From NCBI GenBank assembly GCA_947457715.1, contig CANGXK010000195.1:1-5442 (forward strand): a DNA stretch of 5,442 bases, given 5' to 3'. Under the pieces are notes generated by a model, which was not told the DNA's origin, searched no databases, and saw only the letters and a list, made by a program, of their open reading frames with translations. Shown in pieces: positions 1 through 5,442 of this stretch (positions are counted from its first letter, which is position 1; every line of letters starts with the position of its first letter). Both the position numbers and the translations under genes were made by a program. This DNA comes from Gemmatimonadota bacterium. GTDB taxonomy: Bacteria > Gemmatimonadota > Gemmatimonadetes > Gemmatimonadales > Gemmatimonadaceae.

Positions 1-717
1 CGAAAGGGCGTGAACCGCTACACGTGGACCATGCGTCACCCCGATGCGACCACGTTCCGCGGCATGATTCTGTGGGGCGGCCGTGGCACCGGCCCGTCGA
101 TGGCGCCGGGCACGTACAGCGTGAAGATGACCGCCGGCAGTGCGGCGCCGGTGCAGTACACGTTCGTAGTGAAGCCCGATCCGCGTGCAGAGGCCACGGA
201 AGCGGATCTCGTGGAGCAGACGCGGATGGCGCTGCAGGTGCGCGACCGCATGAGCGACGCGAACACGGGCGTGATCGAGATCCGGAACTTGAAAACGGAT
301 GTCACCGATCGCGCCGCGAAGATGACGGCGAATGCTGCGTTTGCGCCGTTGGCGAAGAAGTTCGCGGATTCGTTGAGCGCCGTGGAAGACTCGGTGTATC
401 AGACGAAGAATCAGTCGGGACAGGACCCGCTGAATTTCCCGATTCGCCTGAACAACCAGTTCTCGAGCTTGCTGAGCTTCGTGTCGAGCGGCGAGCGTCG
501 TCCGCCCAAGCAGGCGTACGATGTGTTGACGGTGTTGAACCCGAAGCTCGACCTGCAGATGGCGCGTATGGAGCGCATCATTGCCGCGGACCTACCGAAG
601 ATCAACGCGATGTTGAAGGCGGCGGGATTGCCGGAGATTACGCGGAGCAAGGTGGAGAAGGGCGGACCTGGTGCGGCGCAGTCGGTGTTTGTGCCGGACG
701 CGGAGTTTGATCGGTAG
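1..717 (+). CDS. C-terminal part of a secreted BNR-repeat (sortilin/VPS10-like) glycosyl-hydrolase-type protein, 5' truncated
   Basis: The frame is open from the first base (R-K-G-V-N-R-Y...) and ends at TAG 715-717, so 238 C-terminal residues are visible and the start lies left of the window; the GTG at 10 is an internal Val. Residues about 1-60 look like the beta-sandwich that closes these proteins (FRGMILWGG, then APGTYSVKM and the strand YTFVVKPDPR). Residues about 64-210 form a charged helical tail containing YQTKNQSGQDPLNFPIRLNN (133-152) and ending in DLPKINAMLKAAGLPEI. I recognise this arrangement from the very large BNR/sortilin-like proteins annotated 'glycosyl hydrolase' or 'WD40/YVTN/BNR-like repeat-containing protein' in Gemmatimonadota and Acidobacteriota; their substrate and enzymatic activity are generally unproven. 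The BNR propeller itself would lie off the left edge. It converges on the minus-strand cluster and is followed by a hairpin terminator. The family call is fairly sure, the biochemical role unknown. Confidence 0.85.
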   Translation, partial: RKGVNRYTWTMRHPDATTFRGMILWGGRGTGPSMAPGTYSVKMTAGSAAPVQYTFVVKPDPRAEATEADLVEQTRMALQVRDRMSDANTGVIEIRNLKTDVTDRAAKMTANAAFAPLAKKFADSLSAVEDSVYQTKNQSGQDPLNFPIRLNNQFSSLLSFVSSGERRPPKQAYDVLTVLNPKLDLQMARMERIIAADLPKINAMLKAAGLPEITRSKVEKGGPGAAQSVFVPDAEFDR

Positions 718-1065: not shown

Positions 1066-3579
1066 TCAGCGCCTGGTTCCGACACACGCTCCACCCACCG
1101 TTTCTCCAACGGCGAACTTCATGACGACCACGGCATCGCGCACTTCGAGGCGCCCGTTGCAGTCGGCGTCGCCGTTGGGAAACAGCACCGTCGTGGCCGA
1201 TACCTGGACGCCGATCAAGCCGAGTTGAATGGCGAGTGCATCGGCAGCATTCACCAATCCGTCGTTGTTCGCATCCCCGCGAAGCACCGGATCGGCGGCA
1301 GTGAAGTCGAATGCCCAGATGCCGCGGCCATACGTGGCCGCGACCAGGCGGTTCGTCCGGGGGTTGTATACGAGATCCGTAATACGGATGGCCGGCAACC
1401 CTTCGTTGCGCGTCCACGTGGCACCAAGGTCGGGGCTTTCGTACACGCCCAGCATGTTCCCCACGTATAGGCGATTGGCCGGTCCCCACACCGCCGCTTG
1501 CGTGGTCACATCAGGGAGAGACCCGTTGATGTCGGTCCAGGTTTGGCCACCATCCTTCGACAAGAACGCGTGAGACGTACCCGAGCTTCCAAACGTTACC
1601 ACCACCCGATTCGCGTCGGCCGGGTCGACCGCAAAATCGGTGATGGCGCGGTTGGGTAGCGTGGTCAGCGGGGTCTGCCAGGTGACGCCGTAATCGCTGG
1701 TGTAGCGCACGTTGCCATCGTTGGTCCCCACGAACAACACGTTCGTGTCGTTGGGCGCGATCGCGAGCGCGGAAATGGTGCCAGAGCCCCGCGTAAGATC
1801 CGGGGAAATCGACGTCCACGCCGTCCCTTCATTGAGCGTACGGTAAACGCGCGCACCACCAAAATACAGGCGCGTCGGGACCTGTGGATCGATGATGAAC
1901 GGCGCAATGAACGCACGTCGTTCAGCGGTTTCGATACCACTGGTGATGCTTCGCGCCGATCCATTCTTGCCGTTCACGCGGACCATATTGCCGCTCTGGC
2001 TCGACACGTAATAGATGTCGGGATCCTGCGGATTCACTGCCGTGAAGGCGCCGTCGCCGCCATTCACACCGTTCCATTGCAGCATGCCGTTTCGGGCAAT
2101 GATCGTGCCGTTGTCCTGCATGCCCGTGAGAATCCCCGATGGATCGGTGGGGTGCACGGACAGCCCCGGATAATGCTGTGAGGTGGCCAGTCCGGCGTTC
2201 AGCGACTCGAAGCTGCTGGCGCCGTCCCGCGAGAGGAAGGCGCCGCCGTCGTTGCCGGTGAAGATGCGCCGCGAATCATTGGGGTCGACGGCGATGACAT
2301 GCCAGTCGCAGTGAATCTGCGGGGCGATCTCGGTGAACGACTGTCCACCATCCGCTGATCGGAATGCGCGCACGCCGCCCACGAACATCACATCGGCATT
2401 GGCGGGATCCACCGCGATCATGAGGTTGTACTCGCTCTGTGCACCGAAGTTGTTTCGGCTGGCGATGACCGGTGCGTTGGTTACGCCGCTCGCCGCTAAC
2501 GTGGTCCGGATGCCGGTGTCATCATCGTAGCGATAGAGGCCTCCGAACCGCCGGTCCGGTCGCGCACCAACGATCCACACGCTGCCCGGCTGCGAGCGGG
2601 ACACGGCGATCTCGAGACGGCCCACCGAGTCGGCGGTAAACGTGGTGACAGTCGCCCACGTGGCGCCGCGGTCGCGCGAGCGCCAGAGCCCGGGCGGCGT
2701 AGCGGAACCGACAACGCCCACGCGGGCCGCATACATGACACTGGGGTCAGTCGGATGCTGCACGACATCGCTGAACGTGAGCGCCGGCGTCACGACCGAC
2801 CAGGACTGCCCCGAATTGGTGGACCGCATGACGCCGCGCACCGTGGCGGCGAGGATGGTGGTGCTGGTGGCCGATCCGGCACTCGCGCGATCAATGACGA
2901 TGTTGTACATCGGCCACGATTGCGAGACTGACGGCGAGAATACCTCTCGCCCGAGCGTGCTCCACGTGGTGCCGCCATCAGTGCTGCGCAGCATGCCACA
3001 CCCCTGCGTGGACTCCGAGGGCTCACCGGTGCCGGCGTACACGATCTGGGGATTTACGGGATCGACCGCGATGGCGCCAATCACCAGTGAACACTGGTTA
3101 TCGGTGAGCGGCACCCAGCTGGCCCCTTCGTTGGTCGACTTCCATACGCCACCTGACGCGGTGCCGACGTACAGGATGTTGCGGTCGGTGGGATGGAACG
3201 CCAACGCCGGCACGCGTCCCGCGTCGAGCTGCGGGAGCGAGCCGAAGAAACCGTTGTCGCCATAAAACCCGCGCGGACCGACCGATGCCCATCGTCCCGG
3301 GGTCGGCACCGGAATAGTGGTCCGAAGCATCGCACTGCTCTCGCCGGCCTGAGCGGCGAGCCACGTCTGATACGTCATCCCCGATCGGGCGTCCGTGCTT
3401 CCCGGCTGCGCATCCCACAGCGCAATCAGCGCGCTGCGCCGCTCTTCGGGATCGCTCTCGCGCACGACGGTTTTGCCCTGTGCGAACAGCGCACCCGGCG
3501 TGAGCGCGATCAGCAGGGTCGCCACACACGCGGCGCGCCGAATGGGGCGTGCGGCATTATTCACGATCGGCGCGTCCAT
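1066..3579 (-). CDS. Secreted Asp-box (BNR) beta-propeller protein with C-terminal type I dockerin
   Basis: The product has 837 aa from ATG 3579. Residues 11-33 are a Sec signal peptide (RPIRR, then a hydrophobic core ending PGALFA, cleavage likely before QG). Ten Asp-box motifs of the form S-x-D-x-G-x-x-W/F follow: 148-155, 199-206, 253-260, 301-308, 408-415, 450-457, 581-588, 627-634, 674-681 and 715-722. These mark one or two sortilin/GH74-like beta-propellers. The segments GTGEPSES (184-191), HCDWH (423-427), GNDGG (442-446) and MQDNGT (487-492) are typical of this secreted BNR family. The propeller ends at YGRGIWAFDF and passes straight into a dockerin (768-825). I cannot identify catalytic residues, so binding or hydrolysis of a glycan or protein is open. 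The gene is last in the cluster and its start overlaps the IPT gene. No clear Shine-Dalgarno precedes ATG 3579; GTG 3564 is an alternative that keeps the signal peptide. An upstream in-frame start at 3675 would lie deep inside the IPT gene and add 32 unlikely residues. Confidence 0.9.
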   Translation of the reverse strand: MDAPIVNNAARPIRRAACVATLLIALTPGALFAQGKTVVRESDPEERRSALIALWDAQPGSTDARSGMTYQTWLAAQAGESSAMLRTTIPVPTPGRWASVGPRGFYGDNGFFGSLPQLDAGRVPALAFHPTDRNILYVGTASGGVWKSTNEGASWVPLTDNQCSLVIGAIAVDPVNPQIVYAGTGEPSESTQGCGMLRSTDGGTTWSTLGREVFSPSVSQSWPMYNIVIDRASAGSATSTTILAATVRGVMRSTNSGQSWSVVTPALTFSDVVQHPTDPSVMYAARVGVVGSATPPGLWRSRDRGATWATVTTFTADSVGRLEIAVSRSQPGSVWIVGARPDRRFGGLYRYDDDTGIRTTLAASGVTNAPVIASRNNFGAQSEYNLMIAVDPANADVMFVGGVRAFRSADGGQSFTEIAPQIHCDWHVIAVDPNDSRRIFTGNDGGAFLSRDGASSFESLNAGLATSQHYPGLSVHPTDPSGILTGMQDNGTIIARNGMLQWNGVNGGDGAFTAVNPQDPDIYYVSSQSGNMVRVNGKNGSARSITSGIETAERRAFIAPFIIDPQVPTRLYFGGARVYRTLNEGTAWTSISPDLTRGSGTISALAIAPNDTNVLFVGTNDGNVRYTSDYGVTWQTPLTTLPNRAITDFAVDPADANRVVVTFGSSGTSHAFLSKDGGQTWTDINGSLPDVTTQAAVWGPANRLYVGNMLGVYESPDLGATWTRNEGLPAIRITDLVYNPRTNRLVAATYGRGIWAFDFTAADPVLRGDANNDGLVNAADALAIQLGLIGVQVSATTVLFPNGDADCNGRLEVRDAVVVMKFAVGETVGGACVGTRR
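1105..1278 (-). other. Type I dockerin module of the propeller protein
   Basis: Two EF-hand-like calcium loops are visible. Loop 1 (residues 769-780) reads D-A-N-N-D-G-L-V-N-A-A-D with ligands at positions 1, 3, 5 and 12, followed by the helix ALAIQLGLIG. Loop 2 (804-815) reads D-A-D-C-N-G-R-L-E-V-R-D, followed by AVVVMKFAVG. This is the duplicated loop-helix pattern of type I dockerins, which bind cohesins in a calcium-dependent way. Cys807 in loop 2 and Cys832 in the tail could form a disulfide that clamps the module. Confidence 0.88.
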
Positions 3580-4000
3580 TGATGAGGGTAAACGGCACGG
3601 CGTTTGTGGTGCCGTGCGACGTAATGACTTGCACATCGTAGCGGCCGCTGGCGAGCGGACGCACCGGCGCGCCACCGCGGTCGGGCAACTGTTCGTCGTT
3701 CACCGGCACGGTAAAGCGCAGCGTACTGGCGGTGCGCGAATGCGACACACGCGGCACCTGACGGAGCTCGATCTGTCCGAAGCGCACGGTATTGAGCGCG
3801 TCGAAGTGACGCCCGGACGCGGTGACCGTGACCTGCTCCCCCTGCGACACCGTGGCGGCTGACGGCGTGAGTGTCTCCAGCGTCGGTGCGGCGACTCCAC
3901 GATGGTGGCAGGCCAACATCCCGGTTAACAGCACACCGGTCCACATGGTGCGCATGGCGGTACACCTGGCGAGCCGCGCACGGGTTACCCTCGTGAGCAT
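3557..4000 (-). CDS. Small IPT/TIG-domain lipoprotein
   Basis: From ATG 4000 the product has 147 aa. The N terminus is Arg-rich, then hydrophobic (MWTGVLLTGMLAC), with a likely lipidated Cys at residue 31; the lipobox MLAC is imperfect but usable. The mature part begins PTLETLTPSAATVSQGE, then VTVTASGRHF and RFGQIELRQV, and ends SGRYDVQVITSHGTTNAV plus a last strand PFTLIN. This is the classic layout of one IPT/TIG immunoglobulin-like domain, as found in bacterial surface and carbohydrate-binding proteins. I infer a structural or adhesive role at the cell envelope. The start is uncertain: ATG 4000 has a G-rich ribosome site 10 nt upstream and gives a positively charged n-region; GTG 4009 would make a GTGA overlap with the previous gene; ATG 3955, behind AGGTG, would give 132 aa. 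The stop (3557-3559) lies inside the start region of the dockerin-propeller gene. Confidence 0.8.
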   Translation of the reverse strand: MLTRVTRARLARCTAMRTMWTGVLLTGMLACHHRGVAAPTLETLTPSAATVSQGEQVTVTASGRHFDALNTVRFGQIELRQVPRVSHSRTASTLRFTVPVNDEQLPDRGGAPVRPLASGRYDVQVITSHGTTNAVPFTLINGRADRE

Positions 4001-4005
4001 GGTGT

Positions 4006-4479
4006 TCACGCCCCTCCCCCGATCTCCCGACGGACGTCGAGTGAGTCCAACAACGAGGCCCCGGCGACGCTGTGCACTTCCTGCACGGCCAGTTCCCACG
4101 TAGACGGTGCGGATGGCGTGGTGCGAACGAACGTGAGGGTCACCAGGGCACCCACGTGCGTCCCGGTCACCCACGCCGCCGCCACCTTGACCGACTGGGC
4201 GTGTGCCTTGCATGCCAGCAGCGGCTCGCCCTGCGCAGCCACGCAATCGGTGAACGTCCACTGTGGTGGCAGCAGGACCTCACCGGTCAGACTCCCCACC
4301 GATCGCGTGGGGCCGGCGCCCAGCGCAATCGCCACGCGGATCGTGTCGCCCTGCATGGGGGCCGGTTGCAACGACAGCACGGTGCGCGGTGCGACGGGGG
4401 CGCTGTTCAGCAGATCGGCCGTGGTGCGGCAGGCCGTGAACGCCAGCGCCAGAACAAGGGTACGGCAGACGGATTTCAT
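4006..4479 (-). CDS. Small lipoprotein consisting of one cohesin-like module
   Basis: The product has 157 aa from ATG 4479. The signal sequence MKSVCRTLVLALAFTAC suggests lipidation at Cys17 (FTAC, a tolerable lipobox). After a short linker, residues about 35-152 show the strand order of a cohesin/CBM-like jelly-roll: VLSLQPAPMQGDTIRVAIAL, then SLTGEVLLP, a hydrophilic middle, VKVAAAWVTG, GALVTLTFVRT, a hydrophobic strand WELAVQEVHSV and a closing segment LLDSLDVRREI. The GDT-x-R-V-x-I opening and the V-TLTF strand fit cohesins best. I see no sequence signature that proves it, and a generic Ig-like or CBM2/3-like sandwich is the alternative. Cys79 and Cys90 could form a disulfide. The start is fixed by an ATGA overlap with the upstream gene. 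A longer reading from 4767 is rejected because it would run through the upstream gene. The likely place of action is the membrane or cell surface, perhaps as an anchor for the dockerin-bearing product two genes downstream. Confidence 0.78.
   Translation of the reverse strand: MKSVCRTLVLALAFTACRTTADLLNSAPVAPRTVLSLQPAPMQGDTIRVAIALGAGPTRSVGSLTGEVLLPPQWTFTDCVAAQGEPLLACKAHAQSVKVAAAWVTGTHVGALVTLTFVRTTPSAPSTWELAVQEVHSVAGASLLDSLDVRREIGGGA
4011..4020 (-). promoter_or_regulatory. Ribosome binding site of the IPT/TIG gene
   Basis: Read on the minus strand this is gggggagggg, containing GGAGG, placed 10 nt before ATG 4000 and only 1 nt before GTG 4009. The distance favours ATG 4000 as the start. The site lies within the last codons of the preceding cohesin-like gene (encoding its Gly-rich end), so translation of the two is probably linked. 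Confidence 0.6.
4476..4479 (-). promoter_or_regulatory. ATGA stop/start overlap between the two cohesin-like genes
   Basis: On the minus strand the bases atga hold both the start ATG (4479-4477) of the cohesin-like lipoprotein and the stop TGA (4478-4476) of the Big/cohesin-like protein. No clear Shine-Dalgarno lies before this ATG (caacccggtcgtaatcatcc), so initiation probably depends on ribosomes finishing the upstream gene. Confidence 0.8.
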
Positions 4480-5442
4480 CGGATGATTACGACCGGGTTG
4501 AATACGCTCGTAACGCTGGTGAGATCGTTCAGCGTGCCGTCGAGTAATTGATTGAGCGTGAAGACGAGCTGGTTGCCCACATTGCGCTGATTGACACGAC
4601 ACTGCAATCGGAGCAGCTGCACGGTGCCCTGCACCGGCGTTGCGGACGCCCACGTCAGACGCAAATTCTGCTGTCCGTCGACCTGCTGCACCTGCACGCC
4701 GGTGCGAAACGTCGTGAGGCTCGTGGCGTTGAACGGCGAGAACGGGAACGACGCCGATCCAGGCCATGCCACCTCGAGATCAATGGCGCTGAGCGGGCGG
4801 CCGTCGCGCGACTCCACCTCGATGGTGATCGAGAACGTGTCGGTGGTGATCCGGTAGCTGGGCAAGGTGGCCCGGACAATCGGCCCCGTGGCGTTGCGTG
4901 GCACAAACACCAACAGGGAGTCAGCGATCGATGCCGTACGGCTGCTTTGTGCCACCACGAACGTGCGCCCCGGAAGTGCGCCGGTGATGACGCCATCGGC
5001 ACTCACCGTGGCGCGCGAAGGGTCACGTGCAAACCAGCGAACGGCACTCGCACTCAGCGCATTGCCTTGCGCATCGCGAGCCGACAGGAACGGCGTGAAT
5101 TGCGACGTTGGCGAGTCGAGCTCCAACACGCGCCGCACTGTATCAGCCGCCGTGACCAACGTGATGACGCTTGTGGGTTGTGCCGAGCTGTCCGGTGTCA
5201 CGGTCGTAAACGCTCGCCCAGTCACTCCCGGCAGCCCGTCGGCAGCGTACTGCAGCGAGCGAACACCTTGGGCGCCGAGTACCGTGAGCGCAGAGAAGGT
5301 GGCGCGCCCCAGTGTATCGGTCTCGGCCGTCGCATTACTGAGTGTCCCGATGCCCCCTTGCAGCGTGGCACGAACCCGCACGCCCGCATCGGGAGCCGTA
5401 TTGCCGACGCTGTCCAGCAGCTGAACGACCGGCGGTGCTGGC
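4476..5442 (-). CDS. Surface protein with bacterial Ig-like domains and C-terminal cohesin-like module, N-terminal part outside window
   Basis: The frame is open to the right edge, so 321 C-terminal residues are visible and the true start lies beyond 5442; the GTG at 5381 is an internal Val of an Ig-like domain. Residues 1-83 form most of a Big_1 (invasin-like) domain: PPVVQLLDSVGNTAPDAGV, then ATLQGGIGTLSNATAETDTL, GRATFSALTV and a final strand. Residues about 89-180 resemble Big_2: FLSARDAQGNALSASAVRWF, then ATVSADGVITGALPGRTFVV. Residues about 187-321 form a cohesin-like module that ends the protein. There is no C-terminal membrane anchor or sorting signal in view. Such proteins usually carry an N-terminal signal peptide and stacked Ig domains holding a binding module away from the cell; that is inference here. 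The gene is the first visible member of the four-gene cluster and overlaps the next by ATGA. Confidence 0.85.
   Translation of the reverse strand, partial: PAPPVVQLLDSVGNTAPDAGVRVRATLQGGIGTLSNATAETDTLGRATFSALTVLGAQGVRSLQYAADGLPGVTGRAFTTVTPDSSAQPTSVITLVTAADTVRRVLELDSPTSQFTPFLSARDAQGNALSASAVRWFARDPSRATVSADGVITGALPGRTFVVAQSSRTASIADSLLVFVPRNATGPIVRATLPSYRITTDTFSITIEVESRDGRPLSAIDLEVAWPGSASFPFSPFNATSLTTFRTGVQVQQVDGQQNLRLTWASATPVQGTVQLLRLQCRVNQRNVGNQLVFTLNQLLDGTLNDLTSVTSVFNPVVIIR
4479..4883 (-). other. Cohesin-like module at the end of the Big-domain protein
   Basis: The segment starts after PRNATGP and contains strands RITTDTFSITIEVES, PLSAIDLEVAWP, TGVQVQQVDG, NLRLTWASATPVQGTVQLLR, LQCRVNQ, QLVFTLNQLLDG and the closing VFNPVVIIR. 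A long hydrophobic strand with 'A-x-A-x-P-x-x-G-x-V-x-L-L-x-L', then 'L-x-D-G-x-L-x-D', then a final strand is the cohesin order. The call is by pattern only, without an alignment. The alternative is another carbohydrate-binding beta-sandwich. Confidence 0.55.

What the first reader, a model, noticed from the sequence alone, without database searches (positions are those of the whole stretch)
1066..5442. Possible compact cohesin-dockerin surface assembly encoded by four coupled genes
Consecutive minus-strand genes encode a Big-domain protein with a C-terminal cohesin-like module, a lipoprotein that is little more than a cohesin-like module, an IPT/TIG lipoprotein and a secreted beta-propeller with a canonical type I dockerin. 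Seen directly: exported proteins, clear dockerin, overlapping genes. Known: dockerins bind cohesins, and both modules also occur outside cellulosomes in many bacteria. Inferred: the dockerin docks the propeller onto one or both neighbours, making a miniature non-cellulosomal scaffold on the cell surface. The pairing of a lipid-anchored single cohesin with a longer Ig-stalk cohesin would offer two alternative docking sites.
Basis: partly seen in the sequence, partly recalled or inferred. Interest (0 to 1): 0.75.

Follow-up and report, generated by a model that had tools for sequence, protein, structure and literature searches.

The report
Miniature cohesin-dockerin cell-surface docking operon
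A bacterium related to Gemmatimonas carries four overlapping genes that look like a tiny building kit: two lipid-anchored proteins with sockets (cohesins), one further lipoprotein, and a secreted propeller protein with the matching plug (dockerin); the set has stayed together in many relatives although the sockets are too divergent for the standard cohesin model to see.

The parts
4476..5441 (-). gene A (5' part cut off by the window): Ig-like (Big) stalk with C-terminal cohesin; full-length relatives are lipoproteins of about 660 aa
   Evidence: (Big matches sub-threshold in the window)
4479..4904 (-). cohesin module of A (residues 180-321)
4006..4479 (-). gene B: lipoprotein made of one cohesin module (about residues 31-157), lipobox Cys17
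3557..4009 (-). gene C: lipoprotein with an IPT/TIG-like domain, lipobox Cys34
   Evidence: (TIG 16.7 bits, under the 20.9 cut-off)
1066..3579 (-). gene D: exported beta-propeller protein (Sortilin-Vps10/BNR, GH74-like) with C-terminal dockerin
1117..1278 (-). type I dockerin of D (residues 768-821), two F-hand calcium loops
   Evidence: PF00404 18.9 bits in the window, under the cut-off; over the cut-off on D in 10 of 11 related genomes; loops read directly
4476..4479 (-). ATGA overlap, stop of A / start of B
   Evidence: a start codon at the same 4-bp overlap in 11 of 11 relatives
4006..4009 (-). 4-bp overlap, stop of B / start of C
   Evidence: a start codon at the same 4-bp overlap in 11 of 11 relatives
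3557..3579 (-). 23-bp overlap of C and D
   Evidence: 23 bp in L001, L008 and L009, 4 bp in the other 8 relatives

Best explanation
A-B-C-D is a self-contained, non-cellulosomal cohesin-dockerin assembly. Translationally coupled genes make three envelope lipoproteins and one exported client. The client D, a GH74-like propeller protein that lacks GH74's first catalytic Asp and so probably binds rather than cuts its ligand, folds its C-terminal dockerin around two calcium ions and docks into a cohesin: that of A, held away from the membrane on an Ig-like stalk, or that of B, which sits close to the membrane. C is a third lipoprotein of the complex or an assembly helper. Shown: genes, overlaps, predicted cohesin folds, dockerin loop pattern, conservation of the set, and association of cohesin genes with the dockerin rather than with the propeller. 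Inferred: binding, calcium dependence, one-at-a-time use of A or B, outer-surface location, D's ligand.
Against: No complex was predicted and no binding is known. The dockerin-bearing propellers are probably one clade, so 37 against 31 may reflect a single evolutionary event. Only 2 of 20 candidate cohesin proteins scanned pass Pfam's cut-off, and 2 more match below it. The dockerin's positions 10-11 (AA / VR in the window) do not tell a known partner type. In 7 of 39 dockerin tails one calcium loop departs even from a relaxed pattern. C is not found by profile in 8 of 40 loci, two of which have no upstream sequence, and in L107 and L110 it lies upstream of A instead. Partial distance correlations of the dockerin with A and B (0.24 and 0.23) are only a little above that with C (0.14; n = 28).
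Confidence: 0.72

Rival explanations
1. A and B have the cohesin fold but act as structural or adhesive Ig-like lipoproteins; the D dockerin binds something else, or is only a stable calcium-binding end piece. The operon is kept for joint regulation.
For: A shared fold does not prove function; a cohesin homologue occurs in TMEM132 where no dockerin partner is detectable in vertebrates (PMC6030884, passages read). The window's modules miss Pfam's cohesin model.
Against: Cohesin genes accompany the dockerin and not the propeller (37 of 37 against 0 of 31); other dockerin genes of the family also sit by cohesin matches (15 of 16).
Confidence: 0.18
2. Only one of A and B is the dock for D; the other cohesin binds a different dockerin protein or has lost binding.
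For: The two cohesins form distinct clades, as expected if specificities differ; three loci have just one cohesin gene upstream (L106, L189, L191).
Against: In 8 of 11 close genomes D is the only dockerin over the cut-off, so no second client is seen; both cohesins show similar extra distance correlation with the dockerin (0.24 and 0.23, n = 28; 0.28 and 0.17, n = 32). The single cohesin is on the A side of the tree in L106 and L191 and B-type in L189, which suggests that either can suffice.
Confidence: 0.35
3. The kit is a degradative surface enzyme complex, a minimal cellulosome-like system in which D cuts xyloglucan or another glycan.
For: D's nearest solved relatives by sequence are GH74 xyloglucanases and other propeller glycosidases (best E 2.3e-19); NCBIfam glycosylhydrolase F510_1955 scores 144.9 (cut-off 175).
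Against: The GH74 position that is Asp in 2cn2 and Ala in 2cn3 is Ala141 in D and Ala or Ser in 9 of 9 aligned D proteins; no carbohydrate-binding module matched; A and B carry one cohesin each, so no multi-enzyme scaffold.
Confidence: 0.12

Closest known systems
Non-cellulosomal cohesin-dockerin proteins (Archaeoglobus fulgidus cohesin 2xdh; review by Peer et al. 2009, not held here)
   Same: Single cohesins outside cellulose degradation; both window modules match 2xdh first by VIA-align.
   Different: Here two separately conserved cohesin types, both on lipoproteins, are translationally coupled to one dockerin propeller and a TIG-like lipoprotein, in a bacterial family.
Clostridium perfringens cohesins on glycoside hydrolases (2vo8, 2jh2, 2w1n, 2o4e)
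   Same: Single cohesins outside cellulosomes; among the top fold matches.
   Different: In the entries that name the parent (2vo8, 2w1n, 2o4e) the module belongs to a glycoside hydrolase; here the cohesins are on lipoproteins and the propeller bears the dockerin.
ANME archaea dockerin/cohesin proteins (PMC9012536, passages read)
   Different: Variable domain sets, including scaffoldin-like proteins with up to five cohesins; here a recurring four-gene operon.
Cellulosome (Clostridium thermocellum and others)
   Same: Dockerin-cohesin logic; cohesins of scaffoldins and of the anchoring protein OlpA (3ul4) are among the top fold matches.
   Different: No multi-cohesin scaffoldin, no carbohydrate-binding module and no cellulase seen in the operon.

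Membership tests
Cohesin (PF00963 superfamily) | cohesin beta-sandwich fold | tested here: met
Cohesin (PF00963 superfamily) | sequence homology to known cohesins | tested here: met
   Only through relatives: A-like L123 36.5 bits and B-type L118 30.5 bits (cut-off 24.1), 2 of 20 candidates scanned. The window's own A and B give no PF00963 hit at E <= 1, nor does any of the 11 close genomes.
Cohesin (PF00963 superfamily) | binds a dockerin | not testable with these tools
   No complex prediction or binding data; only gene association.
Type I dockerin (PF00404) | two calcium-binding F-hand repeats | tested here: met
   Both loops read in the window; of 39 related tails 32 have two loops under a relaxed pattern and 7 have one; 20 of 39 have two under a strict pattern.
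Type I dockerin (PF00404) | match to the family model | tested here: met
   Through relatives: window 18.9 bits, under the 22.9 cut-off; over the cut-off on D itself in 10 of 11 related genomes (G008's D is cut by a contig end).
Cellulosome | scaffoldin with several cohesins | tested here: not met
   A and B carry one cohesin each in the window and its close relatives.
Cellulosome | dockerin-borne plant-cell-wall enzymes and a carbohydrate-binding module | tested here: not met
   D lacks the first GH74 catalytic Asp; no carbohydrate-binding module among Pfam matches at E <= 1. The rest of the window's genome is not held.
GH74 xyloglucanase | propeller related in sequence | tested here: met
   best solved relatives are mostly GH74 xyloglucanases, best E 2.3e-19, over parts of the protein.
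GH74 xyloglucanase | catalytic Asp in the first propeller | tested here: not met
   Ala141 in the window, Ala or Ser in 9 of 9 D proteins. That 2cn3 is the catalytic-site mutant of 2cn2 is recalled; the second catalytic residue was not tested.

The most novel reading that the evidence does not exclude
One client, two sockets at two heights: the propeller is first caught near the membrane by the short B cohesin and then handed to, or switched with, the A cohesin on its Ig stalk, so that the two separately conserved cohesin types tune display or release of a ligand-binding propeller. This would be a regulated, minimal cohesin-dockerin display device.
Probability: 0.2. Interest if true: 0.75.

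Novelty: new variant of a known kind. Interest (0 to 1): 0.56.

Why it matters
It gives a minimal cohesin-dockerin system with both candidate partners in one operon and no sign of a cellulose role, in a group that includes cultured Gemmatimonas. The cohesins are below Pfam's detection in the window and its 11 close genomes, so orphan dockerins elsewhere may have hidden neighbours too. The pairing is directly testable with three small recombinant modules, and could yield an orthogonal binding pair.

Tried and rejected

The idea that the propeller rather than the dockerin carries the gene association was rejected: 31 dockerin-less propeller homologues (in 30 loci) have no upstream cohesin match; two loci have weak matches (E 9e-5 and 4e-4) in a downstream overlapping ORF (L204, L201). 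Absence of a dockerin there rests on a profile of D-type dockerins; 7 of them were scanned with Pfam and 0 of 7 had PF00404 at E <= 0.01. Because the first count used profiles iterated on dockerin loci, I repeated it with the starting profiles: same result at E <= 0.01; at E <= 0.001 one dockerin locus (L115) drops out. Rows left out of the 37 and 31: L012 (a piece of D), L095 and L193 (under 1 kb upstream); L002, L008, L174, L194 and L196 (propeller cut by a contig end); the second propellers of L178 and L181 (partial match).

A mirror-tree style test was tried to choose between A and B as partner; it did not decide, and its permutation p-values ignore phylogeny. Cellulosome and GH74 membership were rejected on tested features. 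Literature searches: cohesin + dockerin + Gemmatimonad- gave 3 papers and Gemmatimonas + dockerin 1, incidental by their titles (listings only); dockerin + cohesin + propeller + lipoprotein gave 3, none on this by title (listing only). Searches were seen as listings. Passages were read in PMC6030884, PMC2930009, PMC12484212 and PMC9012536. Peer et al. 2009 is not held.

Full report
What is there. The window (5442 bp) holds, on the minus strand, A (4476-5441, cut at its 5' end), B (4006-4479), C (3557-4009) and D (1066-3579). Stop and start codons overlap by 4 bp (A/B, B/C) and 23 bp (C/D). B is a 157-aa lipoprotein precursor, C a 150-aa one, D an 837-aa exported protein with Sortilin-Vps10/BNR propeller repeats (112 bits) and a C-terminal dockerin (18.9 bits, below the 22.9 cut-off). 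Pfam sees no cohesin in A or B at E <= 1. Two full-length A proteins whose module is 99% and 96% identical to the window's (P0012, P0013) are 668 aa long and begin with a lipobox-like signal, so A, B and C are all predicted lipoproteins. The window's organism is not given; its nearest relatives (D 83-84% identical) are Gemmatimonadetes assemblies.

Conservation. A scan of genome contigs with D gave 12 loci from 11 genomes. In 11 of 11 loci long enough to judge, A-B-C-D follow each other on one strand, with start codons at the same 4-bp A/B and B/C overlaps, and C/D overlaps of 4 bp (8 loci) or 23 bp (3 loci). The twelfth locus, L012, is the other end of D from the L002 genome. Some flanking genes are shared among the closer loci (such as L003, L004, L006, L009 and L011), but L005 and L010 have the four genes in other surroundings, so the unit is these four genes. 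In 148 genomes of the family of G006, strong matches to the A cohesin (E < 1e-60), B (E < 1e-50) and D (over 1000 bits) fall in the same 8 genomes.

Does the cohesin go with the dockerin? Of 148 genomes of the family 48 have a dockerin and 31 a D homologue at E <= 1e-100. I took 24 loci with distant D homologues (39-45% identity). With the starting profiles, 22 of 24 have a B-like gene (E <= 0.05) and 15 of 24 an A-like gene (E <= 0.01; 17 at E <= 0.2). Profiles iterated on these and 16 other dockerin loci found 87 (A) and 88 (B) of 1871 ORFs at E <= 0.01, largely the same ones, and no reversed ORF. Then, over 92 loci and 4593 ORFs, 40 D-like ORFs (one a fragment) had a dockerin; 37 of these have at least 1 kb upstream, and 37 of 37 have a same-strand upstream cohesin gene, 34 of 37 two or more. 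A phylum-wide search matched D's profile in 303 of 395 genomes at E <= 1e-60. I fetched the listed dockerin-less propellers down to 460 bits: 31 propellers in 30 loci have a complete end and 1 kb upstream, and 0 of 31 have an upstream cohesin gene. To avoid circularity I repeated the count with the starting profiles: 37 of 37 (27 of 27 distant loci) and 0 of 31 at E <= 0.01; 36 of 37 and 0 of 31 at E <= 0.001. Caution: the dockerin-bearing propellers are probably one clade, so the contrast may be a single event. Among 16 dockerin loci of the family whose dockerin protein is not D, 15 also have a cohesin-profile match in the same or a neighbouring gene; these loci helped to build the iterated profiles, and one (L125) is weak.

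Two socket types. A tree of 77 cohesins from these operons separates 36 A-type and 36 B-type sequences, named by gene position, with none misplaced (support 0.94). Both types thus look old and separately kept. Where only one cohesin gene is upstream it lies on the A side of the tree (L106, L191) or is B-type (L189), which suggests that one can suffice. Two loci have a third cohesin fused to the TIG-like domain (L117, L120), and in L122 B and C are one protein. C is missing by profile in 8 of 40 loci and lies upstream of A in L107 and L110. A distance-matrix test gave partial correlations with the dockerin, given the propeller, of 0.24 (A), 0.23 (B) and 0.14 (C), n = 28, and of 0.28 (A) and 0.17 (B), n = 32: in the expected direction, but weak.

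The client. D's nearest solved relatives by sequence are mostly GH74 xyloglucanases. The GH74 residue that is Asp in 2cn2 and Ala in 2cn3 aligns with Ala141; it is Ala or Ser in 9 of 9 aligned D proteins. So GH74 chemistry is unlikely and ligand binding more likely; other activities are not excluded.

How it most likely works. Shown: the gene set, overlaps, predicted cohesin folds, calcium-loop pattern, conservation. Inferred: D is exported, its dockerin folds around calcium and docks into the cohesin of A (long stalk) or B (short tether), so that D is displayed at the envelope without a lipid anchor of its own; C is a further member. Whether this is the outer surface of the cell is not shown.

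What is known. Non-cellulosomal cohesins and dockerins are known from diverse bacteria and archaea, and archaeal versions bind specifically (PMC9012536, passages; Peer et al. 2009 not held). A cohesin homologue next to bacterial Ig-like domains is known from TMEM132 in animals (PMC6030884, passages). The searches named in Tried and rejected found no paper on such a system in Gemmatimonadota by title in the held library, which lacks most subscription journals. Verdict: a new variant of a known kind, with docking the one step still to test.

Noticed in passing
window 1-717, plus strand: End of a convergent gene with no Pfam or NCBIfam match at E <= 1; no similar ORF in the 12 loci, several of which are short.
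   Followed up: partly
L123-L138 (non-D dockerin loci): Dockerin genes of the family other than D sit beside or contain cohesin-profile matches in 15 of 16 loci; several proteins seem to carry both modules (such as L131).
   Followed up: partly
L117 4712-5560, L120 8668-9480, L122 5529-6632: Cohesin-TIG fusion proteins joining B-like and C-like modules.
   Followed up: partly
L122 6646-10125: A D homologue with an extra cohesin-like module between propeller and dockerin.
   Followed up: no
window gene B, 4006-4479: Two cysteines (C79, C90) invariant in 32 sequences, in neighbouring predicted strands, perhaps a disulfide.
   Followed up: no
L010 (CALQGY020000011.1): Record titled Candidatus Kuenenia carries the operon, and its genome G010 is listed in the family of G006, a Gemmatimonas record, so the title looks wrong or the bin is mixed.
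   Followed up: no
L006 10049-12516: D is split over two overlapping frames in this assembly: a sequencing error or a broken gene.
   Followed up: no
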